A DNA stretch of 64,000 nt from Acaryochloris sp. CCMEE 5410 (GTDB lineage: Bacteria; Cyanobacteriota; Cyanobacteriia; Thermosynechococcales; Thermosynechococcaceae). A model generated the notes under the pieces. The model was not told the origin of the DNA. It saw only the letters and a list, made by a program, of their open reading frames with translations, and ran no database searches. Shown here in pieces: positions 2,548 through 35,495 of this stretch (positions within the stretch are counted from its first letter, which is position 1; every line of letters begins with the position of its first letter). The translations under genes and the position numbers were made by a program. The DNA lies in the NCBI RefSeq assembly GCF_000238775.2, contig NZ_AFEJ02000001.1, positions 2,294,001 to 2,358,000 on the forward strand. The letters run 5' to 3'.

Positions 2548-2825
2548 TAGTGGTAATCCTCAAGATCGACATCACAAGCATCAACACCATCGAAGGTGAA
2601 GGTAATCCGCCAGTTTCCAGATATTCTCACTGACCACGTTCCTTTGCGTTGACCAACTAATTCATGAAGCACCAAACCAGGCAAATTCATGTCTTTTGGA
2701 GACGTTGCCGCATTGAGGCGAGCTAGAATGATCCGAATCCGTTTAGCATGATTTGTCTGAATGCCTCGGGTGCTTCCTGACTCAAAAAATTGCTTTAATC
2801 CTCGATGTTTGAAGCTAATGATCAT
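2547..2825 (-). CDS. higB: HigB-family toxin (RelE superfamily)
   Basis: HigB-type toxins are small ribosome-dependent endoribonucleases of the RelE/ParE fold. The product is 92 residues from [14 protein letters not shown]. The family's C-terminal strand pattern is visible ([19 protein letters not shown], then DVDLEDYH). The frame also opens six codons earlier, at 2843, but that codon lies inside a palindrome that looks like the HigA operator, and 92 residues fits the family length, so I prefer 2825. The gene overlaps higA by one base. The toxin looks intact: the Arg and aromatic residues expected near the C-terminus are present. Confidence 0.9.
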
Positions 2826-2830
2826 CGGTC

Positions 2831-2862
2831 GATTGTAACCCATAACGTTACTAGTTACAATC
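2831..2862. promoter_or_regulatory. Inverted repeat upstream of higBA, probable HigA operator
   Basis: GATTGTAAC (2831-2839) and GTTACAATC (2854-2862) form a perfect 9 bp inverted repeat with a 14 bp spacer. The spacer contains the palindrome TAACGTTA (2843-2850). The site sits just upstream of the preferred higB start, where XRE antitoxins usually bind to repress their own operon. Binding by HigA is inferred. Confidence 0.6.
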
Positions 2863-2940
2863 TGGCGAGAGGATCAGGGCCTGACGTCAAGGATAACCGG
2901 GCCAAGAACTGACGTTGATGAGCAAAATGAATGTATGACG

Positions 2941-3804
2941 CTATTCCGGCTCCGGTTCATCCGTTTGTTTTGTGCCACATTCTTGAGTTGACGTTGCCTT
3001 TAACAAGTGGTCGCGGAACGCATCTGGTAACAATTTTGCATTTCCACTGCTAACCGTACCGCAGCAAACCGTTGACAGGTAGTCGCCAGCCTTACGCCAA
3101 AGGTCATCACAGTCGGGGTCGTTCTTGGCCACGGTGAGAACATGACCGTCCTTGTAGCTTCGGCAAATATCGAAGAGCAGTCCTCCTGTATGGGATTCAA
3201 GGCGGTCAATGTACTGAATGAACCATCCCTCGTATTCCATTTCTGGAACTTGGTCAGGTAAGCATTTATCACTGGCGTAGTACCGCCATGTAACTTTGCG
3301 CCCGGAGTCATTCAACAGTTCGAGCCACATTATTGGCGATGGCAGCCTTCCGTTCGGCAAGATCACTGTGAAATCTCGATTACTCAGCCATTCTGGAACG
3401 GGTTCATCGACATCGACTACTGATGTCACCTCAAAACTTTCAGCGACGATTCGCAGAACTCCCGGAATATCAATCTCGAATCCGATGCCCTGTCCAGCGT
3501 TATAGGAATTCGCGCCTTCGGCCAGATGTTCAGGATGATATGTCCCATCAAGAGCATACTCCGTAATGTCTTGAGCCACGAGCTCGATGGTACGCAATGT
3601 CCGTGGTTCTCCGGCCGCGTAGCTACCAGCGACCTGGAATTGGAGGGTTAGCCGGACATCGGTTGCATCGTTACGGCCCGGAAGCGGCTCCAAACACGAC
3701 ACTGACGCGTCGTGTAAGAAATGGTTTCGGTGAATCCATTCATCGAGCGCTGTGACAGAATCAATTTGCACGGTATCGAAATCCGAAAGCGGTCTCCGAG
3801 GCAC
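2941..3804 (-). CDS. Hypothetical protein, 287 aa
   Basis: I do not recognise a family. The protein is soluble, without a signal peptide or membrane segment. It is rich in beta-type sequence in the first two thirds (for example DVRLTLQFQVAGSY and GIGFEIDIPGVLRIVAESFEVTSV). The C-terminal region contains WYRYY-like aromatic residues and a Cys pair (TVCCGTVSSG), and the protein ends in an acidic DEPEPE tail. It is transcribed in the same direction as higBA and opposite to the integrase remnant at 3987, the polarity expected of an integron cassette. Base composition is more GC-rich than that of the second unknown gene of the island (6099-6629), in keeping with a mixed origin. The start is the first ATG of a long open frame; no clear ribosome binding site was seen. 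Confidence 0.6.
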   Translation of the reverse strand: MPRRPLSDFDTVQIDSVTALDEWIHRNHFLHDASVSCLEPLPGRNDATDVRLTLQFQVAGSYAAGEPRTLRTIELVAQDITEYALDGTYHPEHLAEGANSYNAGQGIGFEIDIPGVLRIVAESFEVTSVVDVDEPVPEWLSNRDFTVILPNGRLPSPIMWLELLNDSGRKVTWRYYASDKCLPDQVPEMEYEGWFIQYIDRLESHTGGLLFDICRSYKDGHVLTVAKNDPDCDDLWRKAGDYLSTVCCGTVSSGNAKLLPDAFRDHLLKATSTQECGTKQTDEPEPE

Positions 3805-3832
3805 AGAACTATTAATTAGACGGATGGCGGCT

Positions 3833-3900
3833 GATAATTCCGGTATGGAGGGTATTATCCGCTAAGTACCGTATAACTCCGACTTTAGGGTCATTATCCA
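3833..3900. repeat. Short repeats upstream of the integrase remnant
   Basis: GATAATTCC (3833-3841) is nearly inverted relative to GGTATTATCC (3851-3860). A second GGTCATTATCC lies at 3889-3899, in direct orientation about 38 bp away. Tyrosine integrases often have such repeats as binding sites beside their own gene, and integron attI sites lie just here. No function can be shown from sequence alone. Confidence 0.25.
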
Positions 3901-4084
3901 GTAGTTTGCTGTAATTAGAAAGCCATTTTTGAGAATCTGAATAATGATAAGCCTTACTCCATAAAGCTTTCAAGCTTCCTGTATCCATGTCCGACTCGCC
4001 TAAACTCTTTGATCAAATCCCCACCACCTTTCGGCTCAAGCGCTATAGCCCTAAGACCGAAAAGTTTTATCTCTACTACATTAA

Positions 4085-5386
4085 GGGATCTACAAATAAA
4101 TAAGGTACCCATCAATTGGGCACAATCTTGATATCCCATTTGGGTAACGCTTCAGAACATAGCCATTGTTGTTTGTAGGCTTCTAGCTCATCTGAGGGCA
4201 CAGTAATGTTCTTTTCATAGGTGCCCTCAATCAAATGAACCAAAGGCTTCAATCCATTCCAGGTCATATTCGATGCCCACTGGACAGCCGTATCAATGGA
4301 GTTGAGGATAGTGCCATTCCAATATTGTTCCAAGGCTGCCCAACATCGCTCAATCGGATTGTATTTGCTGTGATAGGGCGGATAGTAAATCAGATGAACC
4401 GATAATCGTGTCATTTGGACAAACTCAACCATACGCTTGATAAATTGTGTGCGGTTACTGCGCACTGCAGAGCCGCCATCAAGGTTAATTTCTAATCCCT
4501 CTATCTGAGGATAGTTATCGTGATGTTCGCGCCACCAAGCCTCTAAACAATCAACAATAAAATCAGTAGTTTCAGCAGACTGACCAAAGTAAATTGACAG
4601 TTGCCCTGCGAGCACATCGAGAATCCCGAAGGGTACCAAAATAGCGTCCCAATGGTCATCATGGTCATTGGCTTTTGTCGCGTCTAGGGTACGAGCTTTG
4701 CCGCCACGAGAGAGGTTGCCAATTTTAACTTTGGCTTTGCTATCAATCGAGATGCGCAATAGGTTGGGGGCCGCATCGGCAGCATAATTGGCTTGAGCGA
4801 CATTTGCGAAAATCGCATCGGTTTGCGGCAGTTTTTTCAGGGGTTTAACTTTTGGGTTTTTTAAGCGATAACCCATTCGATTCAATAGATTGCCGATGGT
4901 TTGACGGGTTGGTAATGCCTCATCGCTGTAGCCTTTCTCCTCAATCAATGCCTCACGCACGGCCCTGGCACTGATACGGGTGTAGTACAACGTTGATTTG
5001 AACTTCGGATCAGCTTGGGCTTCACCATCAACTAAATCCCGAATGTCAGTTGCTAAATGGGGTAGTTTCGTTTCGCTAAGCTGACGACCTCGGGCTTGAT
5101 AGTTGTCAACGCATCTAATGCCAGTCCGTCGTTCATCAAGGCCCAGTTGAACACTGGTACGTCTCCAACCTAAATGACGCTCAGCTTTGCGGGCAGAGCC
5201 GTCCAGGTAGTCTTCAGCCACTTTTGCCATGAATGCTCGCTTGTGTGGGCCTGTCAGTTTCTTGGCGGCATCTCGAAACGTCTCTTTTATAGGGGCATCT
5301 AGCATCAGATATCCTCAAAACAATCGGTCAATCATGTATTGACTTGTTTCTTAGATTCGCAGGTACTTTATTTCTTGGCAAGTCCC
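4085..5386 (-). mobile_element. ISAzo13-family insertion sequence with terminal repeats and TAA duplication
   Basis: The element is 1302 bp. The left end reads GGGATCTACAAATAAATAAG; the right end, read inwards on the other strand, GGGACTTGCCAAGAAATAAA. These are imperfect inverted repeats of about 26 bp that continue into GTACC on both sides. TAA is found on both flanks (4082-4084 and 5387-5389) as a 3 bp target duplication. The element carries one transposase gene on the minus strand. It interrupts the integrase remnant exactly between Ile and Lys/Asp codons. Confidence 0.88.
4112..5305 (-). CDS. ISAzo13-family transposase
   Basis: This 397-residue DDE transposase mobilises the surrounding element. 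Features typical of the family are an N-terminal helical DNA-binding part (SARKAERHLGWRRTSVQLGL), a middle region that recognises partners (RTLDATKANDHDDHW) and a C-terminal DDE catalytic core: LRISIDSKAKVKIGN with the first Asp, LEINLDGGSAVRSNRTQF with the second, and HSKYNPIERCWAALEQYW with the terminal Glu. The frame is open over its whole length, and both element ends and the target duplication are intact, so the element may still be active. The start is the ATG at 5305; the element's right end lies 81 bp upstream. Confidence 0.93.
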   Translation of the reverse strand: MLDAPIKETFRDAAKKLTGPHKRAFMAKVAEDYLDGSARKAERHLGWRRTSVQLGLDERRTGIRCVDNYQARGRQLSETKLPHLATDIRDLVDGEAQADPKFKSTLYYTRISARAVREALIEEKGYSDEALPTRQTIGNLLNRMGYRLKNPKVKPLKKLPQTDAIFANVAQANYAADAAPNLLRISIDSKAKVKIGNLSRGGKARTLDATKANDHDDHWDAILVPFGILDVLAGQLSIYFGQSAETTDFIVDCLEAWWREHHDNYPQIEGLEINLDGGSAVRSNRTQFIKRMVEFVQMTRLSVHLIYYPPYHSKYNPIERCWAALEQYWNGTILNSIDTAVQWASNMTWNGLKPLVHLIEGTYEKNITVPSDELEAYKQQWLCSEALPKWDIKIVPN

Positions 5387-28153: not shown

Positions 28154-28846
28154 TTAGTTGTTCAACCGAAGATAGCCCCGCATGCCTGCCCGCAAAGGAC
28201 TCTGACCATCACGATCTTGGCGATTAACGGAAGATAGCCGGGTATTGGCGTTTTTACGCGCCCAGACCACTAAATCTTCCCCATCCACCCGGATGGTGCC
28301 TCCTAAAATCTTGATGGCTAGTTGGCCGTTCTCACATTCCATATTGCGGAGGGCATGCCATTTTTCTCGATGGCTGGTGGGACCATGCCCCCAGATCATC
28401 AAGTCCAAAGGAATACCGGACCGGACGCTATAGCCCCGCCCCCAGCACACCCGCCACAGTTCTCGGGCCGTCGTGCATTGCATTTCATAGTCGTTGGAAG
28501 GTGCACAATAGCGATAAATATAGCAATCGCTCATATCGCTTTTGGCCAGGGGATAAAAGCTCTGATCCATCATGGCGTCATGGAGCACACCCCAATAGGC
28601 CGATACGGGACGAATTTTCGCCGAGATAGGAGCTTGCTTGAGGTTCGCCGTCGAAATCACGCCTTCTTTATTGTCAATTAGCTGCATACTATCGAACAAC
28701 GGCTCAGTACGCAGATTAGCGTTGGACAATAAAACAGGCCGACCTTGAACAAACCCTTCTACAAAGGTTTGAATGAGTTCACTATCTGAAAGTGAGTCAT
28801 CAGAGTTGTGAGAGGACATGGCTAAATTCGGTTGGGTAAGGACCAT
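28154..28846 (-). CDS. Conserved-looking hypothetical protein, 230 aa
   Basis: No family recognised. The protein appears soluble, with no signal peptide. Notable segments are the acidic N-terminal SSHNSDDSLSDSELIQTFVE, a central aromatic/Cys part (DCYIYRYCAPSNDYEMQCTT followed by ARELWRVCWGRGYSVRSG), and a C-terminal part with LAIKILGGTIRVDGEDLVVW. The ATG at 28819 (MSSHNSDD) is an alternative start. The gene stands alone between slt and ppk, converging with slt. Confidence 0.65.
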   Translation of the reverse strand: MVLTQPNLAMSSHNSDDSLSDSELIQTFVEGFVQGRPVLLSNANLRTEPLFDSMQLIDNKEGVISTANLKQAPISAKIRPVSAYWGVLHDAMMDQSFYPLAKSDMSDCYIYRYCAPSNDYEMQCTTARELWRVCWGRGYSVRSGIPLDLMIWGHGPTSHREKWHALRNMECENGQLAIKILGGTIRVDGEDLVVWARKNANTRLSSVNRQDRDGQSPLRAGMRGYLRLNN

Positions 28847-29339
28847 GATGTTGCACCTGCTGTTGAGTCGTTCGTAGCGAAAAAAGTATGAACAGTACGT
28901 TCAAATAAAAGCACTGTCATCAGTGAATACCCCCAGCAGAGATTTAAATATAACATCGGCATATTAAGACCCGCACTAATAATCTTGACCTTTGTCAGAA
29001 AATATTCAAAAAAATTGGATCTGTGATGGGGCAGAAAGGCTTGCTCCATCAGCAACAGCTCCCTAAACACCGACCACAACCTCTAACATCTATTAGGATT
29101 GAAAATGACTGATTCATCATCGAAAGTTCAGCCTTCAGTCCGCCCAGATCAATCATCTTGGGTCCGAGGTCTAACCCCTTTTCGATATCGGGTCAGCGAT
29201 AAACCTATGTAACGATAGCTGCAACGGAGTGTTCATGCTTAACGTATCGTTTACCTACGACCAGCAAAATTAAGCTCTAAGCGCTTCTTCTCCAGACCCC
29301 CGTTCCCTGCCTTAGATCACTCCAGATAAATACAAACCC
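28847..29339. other. Intergenic region upstream of ppk
   Basis: 493 bp between a minus-strand hypothetical gene and ppk. An 85-codon open frame on the minus strand (28822-29079) overlaps the neighbour and has no coding character I can support. No RNA or repeat was recognised. Confidence 0.4.
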
Positions 29340-31727
29340 ATGGGTTCAGATAGCATTCGAATTTATACCTTGGCACGGGAGCTGCAGCTAAGCTCCAAAG
29401 AAGTGCTTGCCCTCAGCCATCGCTTACACATCGAAGCCACCACCCCCAGCAGCTCGGTCAGTCAGGCAGAGGCGGATCGAATTATGGCAGCGGTGCAAAC
29501 CAATGGTGCAGCTCCTGCGCCTACCCCACCACCCCAAAAAACTGCAGCATCTCCGCCCGAGATTAATCTGCAGGACCCAGCCTATTACCTCAATCGTGAA
29601 ATTAGCTGGCTGAAGTTTAATCAACGGGTTTTGCATGAAGCCTTTGATGAGCGCACATTGCTGTTGGAGCGGCTCAAGTTTATGGCTATTTATAGCTCGA
29701 ACTTGGATGAGTACTTTATGGTGCGCGTCTCGGGCTTAAAGCAGCAAATTGCCGCTCAGGTCACCCAGCGTTCTCTTGATGGATTAACGGCCCAAGCGCA
29801 ACTCGATGCCATTCACCGGGAGTTGAAACCTGAAATTCAACAACAACATCAATACTTCACGGAATTCCTTAAACCTGAGCTGGCGAAAGAGAATATTTGC
29901 CTGCTCGACTACGACAATCTCAATCCGCAACAAGTTGCCTTTCTCCATCAGTATTTTCTAGATCAGATCTTTCCGGTCTTAACGCCATTGGCCGTAGACC
30001 CTGGTCATCCATTTCCCTATATCTCCAATCTCAGTCTGAATTTAGCGGTGCTGGTCAAAGACACCCAAACGGGTGATGGACATTTCGCCCGCGTTAAAGT
30101 GCCGAGTATGCTGCCCCGGTTTATTGAATTACCGGAGAACAGTTGCGATTGTTCGACCTGCCGCTGGAGTGGCGTCCCCATTGAACAGGTGATTGCCCAA
30201 AACCTAGAATTTCTATTTCCAGGCATGACCATTCAGGCCTGTTACCCATTTCGGATTACCCGGAATGCCGATCTAGAGCTGGAAGAAGATGAGGCGGATG
30301 ATTTACTCCTGGCCATTGAGGAAGAACTGCGCAAACGCCGCTTTGGGTCGGTGGTGCGGATGGAGATTCAAACCGGAACACCAGACTTTATTTGTCAGAC
30401 CCTGATGCGGGAACTGGAGCTGGATGAAAGCGATGTCTATCATATCGAGGGGCTACTCGGCCTAAGTGATCTGATGGGGCTGGCCTTTCTCCCCTTCCCC
30501 CATCTGCAGCAGGCGCCCTGGACTCCCATTGTGCCCTCGCGATTACGCAAGGTGGAACAGTTAGAGATGCCTGTGGTCGCCGCCAATGGGCATCCAGACA
30601 AAGCTATCAAGGAATCGCCCACGGATATCTTTTCGGTGATTCGGGGGGGCGATCTTCTCGTCCATCATCCCTATGACTCGTTTACAGCGACGGTGCAAAA
30701 ATTTATCACCCAAGCCGCCCATGACCCCAATGTTTTAACGATTAAAATGACCCTCTACCGGACGGCAGCGGACAAAGGGTTGGCCAGTTCTCCCATTGTC
30801 AGCAGTCTGATTGCTGCGGCGGAGAATGGCAAGCAAGTGGTGGCCCTGGTGGAGTTAAAAGCCCGATTTGATGAAGAGAATAATATTGTCTGGGCTAGAA
30901 AGTTAGAGAAAGTCGGTGTCCATGTGGTCTATGGGTTAGTGGGCCTCAAAACCCACACTAAGATTGCCTTGGTGGTTCGTCGAGAAAGCAAGCAAATCCG
31001 TCGCTATGTCCATATCGGCACGGGTAACTATAATCCGAAAACTGCTCGCCTCTATACGGACTTAGGGTTGCTGAGCTGTCGCGATGAGTTAGGGGCGGAT
31101 CTGACGGATCTGTTTAACTATTTGACGGGTTTTTCTCGCCATCAAAGCTATCGGAAGCTGTTGGTGGCTCCGGTCAATTTGCGCGATCGCATTTTGGAAT
31201 TGATCAATCGAGAAATCGATCACCAGCGCCAGAGCAACTCAGGCCGCATCATCGCCAAGATGAATTCCCTGGTCGATCCTAAAATTATTCGAGCCCTGTA
31301 TCGTGCTTCTCAAGCGGGAGTGAAGATTGATCTAATTGTGCGCGGGATTTGTAGTCTGAAACCTGGTGTGAAGGGAGTCAGCGAGACGATCAATGTAATC
31401 AGCATTATCGGTCGCTTTCTGGAGCATGACCGCATTTTCTATTTCCATAACCAGGGGCAGCCTACGGTGCTAATTGGCAGTGCGGATTGGCGTCAACGCA
31501 ATCTAGATCGTCGGGTGGAGGCGGTGGTTCCCATTGAGGATCCGGCTTTAGTGGCGGAGCTGCGAGAGTTATTGGAAATTATGCTTTCGGATAATCGCCA
31601 AGCCTGGGAGTTGCAGCCGGATGGAACGTTTATTCAACGACGTCCTGGACCAGATGAACCCGAACGATCGACCCATGAGTTGTTGATGCAGCGGGCGACT
31701 CAGTATGCCCACTGTTTGTTGCATTAG
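29340..31727 (+). CDS. ppk: Polyphosphate kinase PPK1 with an N-terminal IF2_N-like domain
   Basis: PPK1 reversibly polymerises the gamma phosphate of ATP into polyphosphate. The PPK1 body starts near residue 75 (AYYLNREISWLKFNQRVLHE) and contains the N, head and two catalytic C domains. Catalytic motifs include LVGLKTHTKIALVVRRESKQ with the first histidine of the site, RYVHIGTGNYNPKTARLYTD, and near the end FYFHNQGQPTVLIGSADWRQ. Before it, residues 5-50 (SIRIYTLARELQLSSKEVLA, then RLHIEATTPSSSVSQAEADR) match the small IF2_N domain of translation initiation factor IF-2, followed by a Pro/Ala linker. Total length is 795, against about 690-720 for ordinary PPK1. Confidence 0.94.
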   Translation: MGSDSIRIYTLARELQLSSKEVLALSHRLHIEATTPSSSVSQAEADRIMAAVQTNGAAPAPTPPPQKTAASPPEINLQDPAYYLNREISWLKFNQRVLHEAFDERTLLLERLKFMAIYSSNLDEYFMVRVSGLKQQIAAQVTQRSLDGLTAQAQLDAIHRELKPEIQQQHQYFTEFLKPELAKENICLLDYDNLNPQQVAFLHQYFLDQIFPVLTPLAVDPGHPFPYISNLSLNLAVLVKDTQTGDGHFARVKVPSMLPRFIELPENSCDCSTCRWSGVPIEQVIAQNLEFLFPGMTIQACYPFRITRNADLELEEDEADDLLLAIEEELRKRRFGSVVRMEIQTGTPDFICQTLMRELELDESDVYHIEGLLGLSDLMGLAFLPFPHLQQAPWTPIVPSRLRKVEQLEMPVVAANGHPDKAIKESPTDIFSVIRGGDLLVHHPYDSFTATVQKFITQAAHDPNVLTIKMTLYRTAADKGLASSPIVSSLIAAAENGKQVVALVELKARFDEENNIVWARKLEKVGVHVVYGLVGLKTHTKIALVVRRESKQIRRYVHIGTGNYNPKTARLYTDLGLLSCRDELGADLTDLFNYLTGFSRHQSYRKLLVAPVNLRDRILELINREIDHQRQSNSGRIIAKMNSLVDPKIIRALYRASQAGVKIDLIVRGICSLKPGVKGVSETINVISIIGRFLEHDRIFYFHNQGQPTVLIGSADWRQRNLDRRVEAVVPIEDPALVAELRELLEIMLSDNRQAWELQPDGTFIQRRPGPDEPERSTHELLMQRATQYAHCLLH

Positions 31728-32604: not shown

Positions 32605-34329
32605 CTACTGTGTCTCCAGTTCACTCATGGGTAAAAGCAGGCTTGATAGGATCTCTTCGCGAGTTGCTTTTGCGACATAGCAATCACTATTAAGACATTC
32701 AGCCAACAATTTGTTGGCATTAAAATACTGTCTTAGCTTGTCGGTTTGAATAGTGGTGAACTGCCAATCATGACCTATATTGCGATGGTTCACCATCACT
32801 GCCCGCAAATTTTCTGTCCATAATTTTCCCGCAGTTTTCCACCAACTGGTGAATGCTTTACTATTTTGGCCATCAGGTATTTGAGACTTTAAGCTTTTCA
32901 ATTGAATACTAGTTTCAGGATCATTCCTTTTTAGTAATTCGATTTTGGCCAGTCGGTCGAGGGCGAAGACGAGGGCGCTGGCGCTATCGAGGGAGAAAGA
33001 GAGATTACTAGCAATAGCAAGGTTGAGATTGAGGGCAAGGTCAAGGGCAAGGTCACTGGCGCTGGCGAGAGCAAGGTTGCTGGCACAGGCAAGGTCATTG
33101 GCAAGGACGCTGGCGAGATCGAGATCACTAGCGCTAGCAATAGCAAGAGCGAGGTTGCTGGCGCTAGCACGAGCGAGGGAGAGAGTATGGTTGAAGGTAA
33201 GTTCGAGGTCGAGGGCAAGGTCGCTAACGCTGGCGCTGGCGCTGGCAAGGTCGAGGTCACTGGCGTTAGCAAAGGCGAGGTTGTTGGCGCTGGCAAGGGC
33301 AAGAGCAAGGGCGAGGTAAAAAGCTCGAATTGCTTCTGATTTATGGTCAGCTTTGACAGATCGAGCTTTTACACGAACCCAAGCCAGAAAATCTTGTAGT
33401 TCAGGCTCATCAGCAATGAACCGATCAGTTTTGCTTTTGAGCAATCTGAAAAACTCATCGGCTTCAGGCAATATCCCCACAACCAGGAAAAAAACCTCTC
33501 TATAACGTTTTTCAAAACAATGCTTAACAAGATTTTCTAGGGTTATAGAGAGCTTAGACGTTGGACTAGTAATTTGTTTGGCCGTGAAATATTCGTGAAA
33601 TGTCAAATGCGAGAAAGAATAAATTCCCCGCGCACGTTCCACCAAAAGACCATGTTGGGCTTCAATAGATTTGAGTACAGCTTCGCTATCCAGTTGTAGG
33701 GCTTCTTCATCTTCATTAGCACCCTGTAAATTACGGATATATTCGATTATTTTCGTTTCCACAACTTGCTGTTTGAAGAAGTAGTCCCCTTGCTCAAAAG
33801 TTTGATAAGCTAATTGACTTAGCAGATCTTCCTTCCGCTTCAGTGACAGTTTTTTATAGACTTGATCTCGCTCAATATTACGTTTGGCATCCCATTTCTT
33901 CAGCAGAACATCTAACCCCTCTTTATAAAGTTCTGATCGATTATGGGGAAAATCGTTAGCTTCACCAAATACCAAACACAGCAACGTTAATAAGAGTGGA
34001 TTAGTTGCTAGCTCTTGAATTGGCTTGTTATCTTGCAACTGTTTGATGAAATTTTTGCCCTTTTCATTATCTTTCTTAGTTCGAAACCATTTCTTAGCAA
34101 AGTCTCTTATTTGTTCCTCATTAAAATCAGCAATTTCCACTTCAGTAAACTGCTCAAAGGTATATTCACGGGCAGCAATCCGACAGGTCATTACACATTG
34201 GCAATCACGGAACTCTTCCGTAAAAACCTTTATTAAATTCAGCACTCGATTATGATCTTTAGTCTGCACTTCATCCAGACCATCCAGTAAAACTAAAACA
34301 TGTCCATCCTTTAATACTGGGGTAAGATC
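32605..34329 (-). pseudogene. NACHT NTPase, C-terminal part (after the ISAs1 insertion)
   Basis: This piece continues the gene that starts at 36243. It begins at the insertion point with the Walker B/sensor stretch HVLVLLDGLDEVQTKDHNRV, then the NACHT core (FRDCQCVMTCRIAAREYTFE, then IQELATNPLLLTLLCLVFGE) and a winged-helix part (GLLVERARGIYSFSHLTFHE). A helical spacer follows, then a strongly biased repeat region (about 32950-33320) made of short Ala/Ser/Leu/Asn/Asp units, and a final unique domain (FTSWWKTAGKLWTENLRAVM). The usual start in this fragment (34269) is not a natural start. STAND NTPases of this type act as sensors, some in phage defence. Confidence 0.88.
32950..33320 (-). repeat. 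Low-complexity coding repeat in the NACHT gene
   Basis: About 120 residues consist of irregular repeats of the type A-S-A-S-D-L-A-L (for example DLDLASASASVSDLALDLEL and NLALASASDLALDLALNLNL). DNA repeats are of the form CTGGCGCTGGCAAGG with variations. The regular Leu spacing of about five to six residues suggests a solenoid similar to pentapeptide repeats, possibly the sensing part of this STAND protein. The opposite strand is also open (Ala/Arg-rich), which is a by-product of composition. Confidence 0.75.
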
Positions 34330-35495
34330 CAGGGTTGTTTTACGTTCCTCCTAGAAAAAATAGGATGGTTCTACTGACCAACAGTAGAGAGACCGATGAG
34401 CCATCTAATCGATACTTTGAAGCAAGTCCCGGATTTCCGCAGTGCCCATGGCCGTATTCATCCGTTATGGCTGCTGTTGCTATTGATGGTGATGGGCATG
34501 CTTGCTGGATATCAAGGGTACCGTCCGTTAGAAACCTTTGTGAGCGATTATCGCCAGCCTTTAAGTGAGCTATTGGGGCTTGAGAGCCTCGAAGTTCCGT
34601 CTCACTGTACCTTTCGTCGAGTGATGAAGGGGCTTGACTTCCAAGCGTTGAGCCACCAATTTGAAGCATGGATGCTCTCGAAAGCCCAGACTCACTCTCC
34701 CGATAATTATGCAGCCTCCATTGATGGCAAACGGATTCGTCAGGGGCTGACAGATGCCAAGGGGAAGCAGCGTTTTGTAGGGTTGGTGAGTTTATTTGCG
34801 GTGGAAGCAGGCATCACCCTCAAGCTCGAAGCCCTCACTCAGGAGGATAATAGCGAAATCAAAGTCGTCCAGGCACTGTTGGAAACCCTTCAACTCGATG
34901 GCTTGCTGATTACCATGGATGCCTTACACGCCCAAAAAAACACTTGAGAAGATTGTGGCCTCGGGTAACGACTATCTTGTGGCGGTCAAATCCAATCAGG
35001 GAAGACTTTACGACCACCTCCAGACTTACTTTGAGTGTCTTAAACCCATGGCTGAGCACATCCACTCCGCCCAAAGTAGAGGACGAGATGAACATCGGTG
35101 TATACAGGTTTATGAGCCTGTCGGCATAGCCCTACAAGAATGGGAGGCAATTCGCTCTGTGCTTTGTGTCCAACGATGGGGCACTCGCAAAGGAAAGGAG
35201 TATCACAATACGGCCTATTACATCAGTTCAGCTGCCACCTCACCCCAGCATTGGCAATCTCTGGTCCGAGAACATTGGGGCATTGAAAATCGGTTGCATT
35301 GGCCGAAGGATGTTGTTTTTGGCGAAGATGATTATCGACTCGAAGATGAACAAGCACTGCTCAATTGGTCAGTGCTTAGAACTATTGGGATTAATATCCT
35401 GCGGCTAAACGACTATCAATCCCTCAAAACCGCGATGACTAAGCTGGCTAATCGGGTCGATATTATTTTTTCGCTGCTAACTTAAAACAGCCCTG
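34330..35495 (+). mobile_element. ISAs1-family insertion sequence inside the NACHT gene
   Basis: 1166 bp, with inverted ends CAGGGTTGTTTTACG at 34330 and CAGGGCTGTTTTAAG read inwards from 35495. The 10 bp GGGTAAGATC is present on both sides (34320-34329 and 35496-35505), a duplication length known for ISAs1. Removing the element and one duplication restores an open frame of about 820 codons for the NACHT protein, so the insertion is the only lesion seen there. The transposase is itself frameshifted. Confidence 0.93.
34396..35485 (+). pseudogene. ISAs1-family transposase in two frames
   Basis: The first frame (34396-34947) has the N-terminal DDE_Tnp_1-associated domain (VPDFRSAHGRIHPLWLLLLL, then VPSHCTFRRVMKGLDFQALS) and the start of the DDE core (AASIDGKRIRQGLTDAKGKQ, LLITMDALHAQKN). 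At an A7 run (34934-34940) the frame changes: the next frame continues with KTLEKIVASGNDYLVAVKSN and reaches SLVREHWGIENRLHWPKDVV with the terminal Glu, ending at 35485. One extra A, or two missing, explains the shift. Transcriptional slippage on A7 could restore a full protein of about 363 residues, so the element may not be dead. Confidence 0.86.

What the first reader, a model, noticed from the sequence alone, without database searches (positions are those of the whole stretch)
29340..31727. Polyphosphate kinase carrying an IF2_N-like domain
The first 50 residues follow the pattern of the small N-terminal domain of translation initiation factor IF-2, then a Pro/Ala linker leads to a full PPK1. 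Such a fusion could connect polyphosphate synthesis with ribosomes or nucleic acids and is not part of standard PPK1 architecture.
Basis: partly seen in the sequence, partly recalled or inferred. Interest (0 to 1): 0.55.

Follow-up and report, generated by a model that had tools for sequence, protein, structure and literature searches.

The report
Polyphosphate kinase wearing IF-2's N-terminus
In Acaryochloris and its relatives the enzyme that makes polyphosphate has picked up, from its start codon on, the small first domain of translation initiation factor IF-2, and this extra domain is kept by selection although what it does is still unknown.

Summary
ORF 29340-31727 (+) is a complete PPK1 whose residues 4-49 match Pfam IF2_N (29.4 bits as a fragment, cut-off 25.3; 24.9 in the full protein). 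A profile of 13 relatives hits Thermus IF-2 at E=2.4e-10, and the predicted fold lies 1.0 Å from Thermus IF-2 over 52 residues. The domain is homologous to the first (N1) domain of cyanobacterial IF-2, not the second; in two relatives DNA homology to infB runs from the start codon to codon 52 and stops. It is translated and constrained: dN/dS about 0.10, against 0.46 in the linker. The fusion is in 14 of 29 genomes of this order and in none of the listed matches from 130 other genomes of the class. Two genomes also hold a plain PPK1, so a duplication is old; Acaryochloris keeps only the fused copy. A Nostocaceae-type helicase captured the same segment separately. In most PPK copies the fold is kept, but the K-S-H motif that IF-2 conserves is lost. 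I think the domain docks PPK1 to a partner; E. coli IF-2 N1 binds NusA, but the partner here is inferred and untested. I found no published description. New variant of a known kind; interest moderate.

The parts
29340..31727 (+). fused PPK1 gene, 795 aa
   Evidence: PPK1 domains and IF2_N by Pfam; only PPK1 of the genome
29340..29501 (+). IF2_N (IF-2 N1-like) domain, residues 1-54; Pfam match residues 4-49 = 29349-29486
   Evidence: AF2 model of residues 1-55 pLDDT 86.5; fold match to IF-2 N1
29502..29579 (+). Pro/Ala/Ser-rich linker, residues 55-80, weakly constrained (dN/dS about 0.46), pLDDT under 50 at 56-72
29586..29903 (+). PP_kinase_N domain, residues 83-188
29931..30482 (+). PP_kinase middle domain, residues 198-381
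30624..31139 (+). PP_kinase_C_1, residues 429-600, holding His539 and His558 (30954-30956 and 31011-31013), invariant in the 13 fused proteins aligned
   Evidence: that these are the catalytic His motifs is recalled
31158..31646 (+). PP_kinase_C domain 2, residues 607-769
29238..29256 (+). upstream element CTTAACGTATCGTTTACCT, aligned in 6 of 6 Acaryochloris genomes; resembles a Pho box (consensus recalled), but the match in the window alone is no better than shuffles (111 of 300)
28154..28846 (-). 230-aa protein of unknown family upstream, next to fused ppk in 9 of the 13 other fused loci and in 0 of 16 plain loci

Best explanation
This is a PPK1 with all its known parts that gained the first domain (N1) of IF-2 when the 5' coding end of infB (start codon to about codon 52) was copied in front of a ppk gene in the order of Acaryochloris and Thermosynechococcus (shown by sequence). 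It happened before or during the divergence of the two ppk paralogs of this order, possibly twice (inferred). The domain is translated, folded and under selection (supported by substitution patterns and prediction). Most likely it works as a docking module on a flexible tether: it brings PPK1, and so newly made polyphosphate, to a macromolecular partner of the gene-expression machinery, as IF-2 N1 itself docks to NusA in E. coli. The docking step and the partner are inferred; loss of the K-S-H motif in most copies suggests that the partner or the binding mode has changed from that of IF-2.
For: IF2_N over the Pfam cut-off in 14 of 29 order genomes, in the PPK1 frame. Closest to IF-2 domain 1: mean identities 31-64% (best single pairs 37-72%) against 13-22% for domain 2. 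DNA homology infB/ppk runs from -4 to +155 in G012 (70%, E=1.7e-16) and -3 to +155 in G007 (74%, E=1.5e-23) and ends there; in G014, G013, G010 and G000 such DNA homology is no longer detectable. Purifying selection: dN/dS median 0.10 in the domain, 0.46 in the linker, 0.03 in the core. Fold match Z 8.7, rmsd 1.0 Å. The fused copy is the only PPK1 in 12 of the 14 fused genomes, including near-complete ones such as G010, G013 and G014, so the domain is compatible with life on that enzyme. The same N1 segment sits on a helicase in Nostocaceae-type genomes and in stand-alone frames of 56-95 aa in picocyanobacteria, so N1 is used outside IF-2. E. coli IF-2 N1 was pulled down and cross-linked with NusA (PMC12297416, passages), and InfB is a polyphosphate-binding protein in E. 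coli (PMC12345225, passages).
Against: No binding, localisation or expression data. K34, H36 and R49, invariant in 8 of 8 IF-2 N1 domains compared, are kept in only 3, 2 and 5 of 13 PPK copies. NusA of this genome shows NusA_N and KH domains but no acidic-repeat domain in Pfam, while the E. coli contact involves KH2 and AR1. The domain evolves about three times faster than the PPK core. The PPK core tree does not put all fused copies in one clade, though one clade is not rejected (p-AU 0.129).
Confidence: 0.5

Rival explanations
1. Start cassette: the 5' end of infB was useful as an efficient translation start and stable N-terminal cap; the domain has no partner and is kept only because a misfolded N-terminus would harm the enzyme.
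For: The captured DNA begins at the start codon; the K-S-H motif of IF-2 is mostly lost while hydrophobic core positions stay; the domain evolves faster than the core.
Against: Kept through deep divergence in 7 genera, with dN/dS about 0.10; nothing upstream of the ATG is shared with infB beyond 4 bases; a shorter start would do, as plain PPK1 in the same order shows.
Confidence: 0.25
2. The domain acts in cis, as a regulatory or oligomerisation part of PPK1 rather than a docking site.
For: A small helical domain on a flexible linker could reach the enzyme's own surface.
Against: The linker is long, of variable length (about 25-60 residues) and weakly constrained, which fits an independent tether better than a fixed contact; the same domain sits on an unrelated helicase.
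Confidence: 0.15
3. The domain binds nucleic acid directly, as a winged-helix-like part.
For: Besides IF-2 the fold search lists DNA-binding domains: pSK1 Par (Z 8.4), RacA (Z 6.8), MerR-type regulators (Z 4-5.5).
Against: Net charge of the domain is -2 to +3, and -1 in the window, not strongly basic; a shared fold shows no function.
Confidence: 0.08

Closest known systems
Polyphosphate kinase 1 (PPK1; TIGR03705, structures 1xdp and 2o8r)
   Same: All four PPK1 domains, aligned to solved PPK1s from residue 81-83 on
   Different: Solved PPK1s and the other cyanobacterial PPK1s examined lack a counterpart of the first 50-55 residues
IF-2 N1 domain (PF04760; Thermus IF-2 4b43/4b44)
   Same: Sequence, fold and start-codon position
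   Different: No GTPase or tRNA-binding parts; K-S-H motif mostly lost
IF2_N-bearing SF1 helicase of Nostocaceae-type cyanobacteria (L121 and others)
   Same: Same N1 segment at the N-terminus, from the Met on
   Different: Helicase with AAA_11/AAA_12 domains, a separate capture; it keeps K-S at 34-35 in 4 of 4 and His36 in 3 of 4

Membership tests
PPK1 | PP_kinase_N, middle, C1 and C2 domains over curated cut-offs | tested here: met
   TIGR03705 855.1 bits against a cut-off of 465.85
PPK1 | active-site histidines in GLKxHxK and HIGTGN motifs | tested here: met
   His539 and His558 invariant in 13 of 13 fused proteins; the motif roles are recalled
PPK1 | synthesis of polyphosphate from ATP | not testable with these tools
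   needs an assay
IF2_N domain (PF04760) | score over the gathering cut-off | tested here: met
   29.4 bits for residues 1-77 against 25.3, but 24.9 in the full protein, just under; 14 of 14 fused copies in the order over the cut-off by six-frame search
IF2_N domain (PF04760) | N1 fold | tested here: met
   Z 8.7, rmsd 1.0 Å over 52 residues to 4b44; Foldseek ranks IF-2 first, E 0.015, none at 0.001 or below
IF-2 as a translation factor | GTP-binding and initiator-tRNA-binding domains | tested here: not met
   no such domain in the Pfam scan
IF-2 N1 docking site | conserved K-S-H motif and Arg49 | tested here: not met
   window has T-T-P and Met at these positions; K-S-H kept in 2 of 13 copies
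IF-2 N1 docking site | binding to NusA | not testable with these tools
   reported for E. coli (PMC12297416, passages); not tested here

The most novel reading that the evidence does not exclude
The infB start-codon-to-codon-52 segment is a portable bacterial N-terminal docking module: it was captured separately by PPK1 (perhaps twice within one order) and by an SF1 helicase, exists as stand-alone mini-proteins in picocyanobacteria, and anchors these proteins to the transcription-translation machinery, so that polyphosphate is made where genes are expressed.
Probability: 0.3. Interest if true: 0.7.

Novelty: new variant of a known kind. Interest (0 to 1): 0.45.

Why it matters
Polyphosphate binds translation proteins, IF-2 among them, in E. 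coli (PMC12345225, passages), but how PPK1 is placed in the cell is little known (recalled). A natural PPK1 that carries IF-2's own docking domain gives a direct test: remove 55 residues and see whether PPK1, polyphosphate or gene expression moves. It would also give IF-2 N1, whose NusA contact in E. coli was reported in 2025, a second independent user.

Tried and rejected
Chance match: rejected. Wrong start codon: opposed by the conserved Met and codon-position pattern. General cyanobacterial trait: rejected. Origin from the second IF-2 domain: rejected by identity; the FastTree drew domain 2 inside the PPK rows on a branch of 2.8, which I take as long-branch attraction. Capture of the infB promoter along with the domain: no shared DNA upstream of -4, though age could have erased it. 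Pho box: the element is aligned in 6 of 6 Acaryochloris, but single-sequence scores are reached by 15-111 of 300 shuffles, and it is not seen in the other 7 fused or 10 plain upstream regions scored; left as a lead. Single origin of the fusion: undecided. The core tree nests plain copies between fused ones (96/83), one clade not rejected (p-AU 0.129); the N1 tree puts the G007 PPK domain with IF-2 of the same genome (97/85), one clade not rejected (p-AU 0.339); gene neighbourhoods differ. The full-length AF2 model is weak (pLDDT 64) and was used only for the N-terminal part and the linker. The quick tree reported the fused group as one side of a branch, with 75 rows uncounted; the careful tree does not.

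Limits: one search kept the best 80 of 592 relatives. Searches list only the best rows; unlisted ones score lower. In one search fused rows scored 304-352 bits and every other listed row 234 or less. dS is near saturation (pS about 0.7; 2 of 15 pairs saturated in the domain, 7 of 15 in the linker), so dN/dS values are rough. One search left out L003-L008 and L051 as copies of G genomes; one search used 36 of the 104 rows. In one search, 2 of 20 fetched IF-2 stretches (G011, G186) gave no motif match and were left out. Two of 6 helicase loci (L123, L124) gave no motif match. Outside Cyanobacteria the fusion was looked for only among the non-cyanobacterial loci.

Full report
What is there. The window lies in an 8.09-Mb genome of the genus whose named members in the collection are called Acaryochloris (matched through contig lengths). 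ORF 29340-31727 codes for 795 residues. Residues 83-769 hold the four PPK1 domains, aligned to solved PPK1 structures from residue 81 on. Residues 4-49 match Pfam IF2_N: 29.4 bits alone, over the cut-off of 25.3, and 24.9 in the full protein, just under. The own genome has IF2_N in three places only: twice in IF-2 and here. It has one PPK1, plus PPK2-type matches on two contigs.

It is real. In the order, 14 of 29 genomes have IF2_N over the cut-off in the PPK1 frame, 14 of 29 have only plain PPK1, and one incomplete genome shows neither. Thirteen fused proteins align from the first Met (the G001 copy is frameshifted and was left out). A profile of their first 55 residues finds IF-2 of Thermus at E=2.4e-10. 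The predicted structure of the window's domain (pLDDT 86.5) fits Thermus IF-2 N1 with Z 8.7 and rmsd 1.0 Å over 52 residues; Foldseek ranks IF-2 first, with E 0.015 at best for so short a chain.

It is translated and selected. Over 6 Acaryochloris genomes, substitutions in residues 1-52 fall 143/89/435 on codon positions 1/2/3, and dN/dS is about 0.10, against 0.46 in the linker and 0.03 in the core. dS is near saturation, so the values are rough; the codon-position pattern does not depend on that.

It comes from infB. Mean identity to IF-2 domain 1 is 31-64%, and to domain 2 13-22%. In G012 and G007, DNA homology between infB and the fused ppk of the same genome spans from 3-4 bases before the start codon to base 155, the end of N1, at 70% and 74%; in the four other genomes compared it can no longer be seen.

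Where it occurs. In 145 genomes of the class, 143 have a PPK1 match; 4 listed matches begin at model position 1-3, in the IF2_N part, all among the 13 genomes of this order; no listed match from the 130 others begins before model position 23. Among 80 close PPK1 loci, 6 carry the domain and 74 do not at E<=0.05; the 6 are Acaryochloris or near kin.

History. The PPK1 core tree holds all copies of the order together (99/94), with a plain clade (100/98), a clade of 12 fused copies (100/100), and a pair of fused copies from G007 and G012 (100/99), two genomes that also have a plain copy. Whether N1 was captured once or twice is open: one fused clade is not rejected (p-AU 0.129), nor is one clade of N1 domains (p-AU 0.339), yet the G007 PPK domain groups with IF-2 of G007 (97/85) and the two fused groups lie in different gene neighbourhoods.

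What it may do. IF-2 N1 in E. [quoted passage not shown] InfB binds polyphosphate in E. coli, and ppk mutants have disturbed polysomes (PMC12345225, passages). So a docking role is the natural guess. Against a simple copy of IF-2's contact: K34, H36 and R49, invariant in 8 of 8 IF-2 N1 domains compared, are kept in 3, 2 and 5 of 13 PPK copies, while positions such as R7, L11, L15, S38 and A45 are invariant; and NusA here shows no acidic-repeat domain in Pfam. The two copies that keep K-S-H are those of G007 and G012. I therefore hold that the domain is a tether to a partner, that the partner need not be that of IF-2, and that a mere start cassette is the main rival.

The module elsewhere. A 1492-aa helicase (AAA_11, AAA_12; closest PADLOC model MkoA, 381 bits) carries the same N1 segment in several Nostocaceae-type genomes (family name inferred). 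These make N1 look like a module used repeatedly.

Literature. Searches for IF2_N with polyphosphate kinase (0 papers), for IF2_N or PF04760 (16 papers, 15 listed, no PPK1 among the titles), for Acaryochloris with polyphosphate kinase (2 papers, listing only) and for domain-architecture terms (35 papers, 12 listed) showed no description of this fusion. The library holds open-licence papers only. PMC1780047, PMC11838494 and PMC11322815 were read in passages.

Noticed in passing
L121:770-5248 (-); also L122, L126, L127 and, by frame length, G217, G399 and G058: SF1 helicase of about 1490-1510 aa with an IF-2 N1 domain at its N-terminus (42 bits in L121), a separate capture of the same infB segment; PADLOC model MkoA at 381 bits.
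   Followed up: partly
L158-L163 (genomes G190, G164, G301, G141): Stand-alone frames of 56-95 aa in picocyanobacteria that consist almost wholly of an IF2_N domain; 1-2 per genome.
   Followed up: partly
window 32605-34269 (-): NACHT-NCH2 protein of 554 aa that seems cut at its N-terminus, with transposase-like ORFs at 34396-35485 beside it; its middle holds Ala/Ser/Leu/Asp-rich repeats.
   Followed up: no
window 29238-29256: Conserved upstream element (C/T)TTAACGT...TTTACCT about 90-110 bases before the start in 6 of 6 Acaryochloris genomes, Pho-box-like.
   Followed up: partly
window 28154-28846 (-): Conserved 230-aa protein without a Pfam match next to fused ppk in 9 of 13 other fused loci.
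   Followed up: partly
L090, L091 (G007); L095, L096 (G012): Two PPK1 paralogs, one fused and one plain, in one genome; several other cyanobacterial families also carry two PPK1 genes.
   Followed up: partly
L125:2193-2831 and 2699-4885 (G113): infB appears split in two overlapping frames (212 and 728 aa), while a relative (G267) has one frame of 923 aa: frameshift or assembly error.
   Followed up: no
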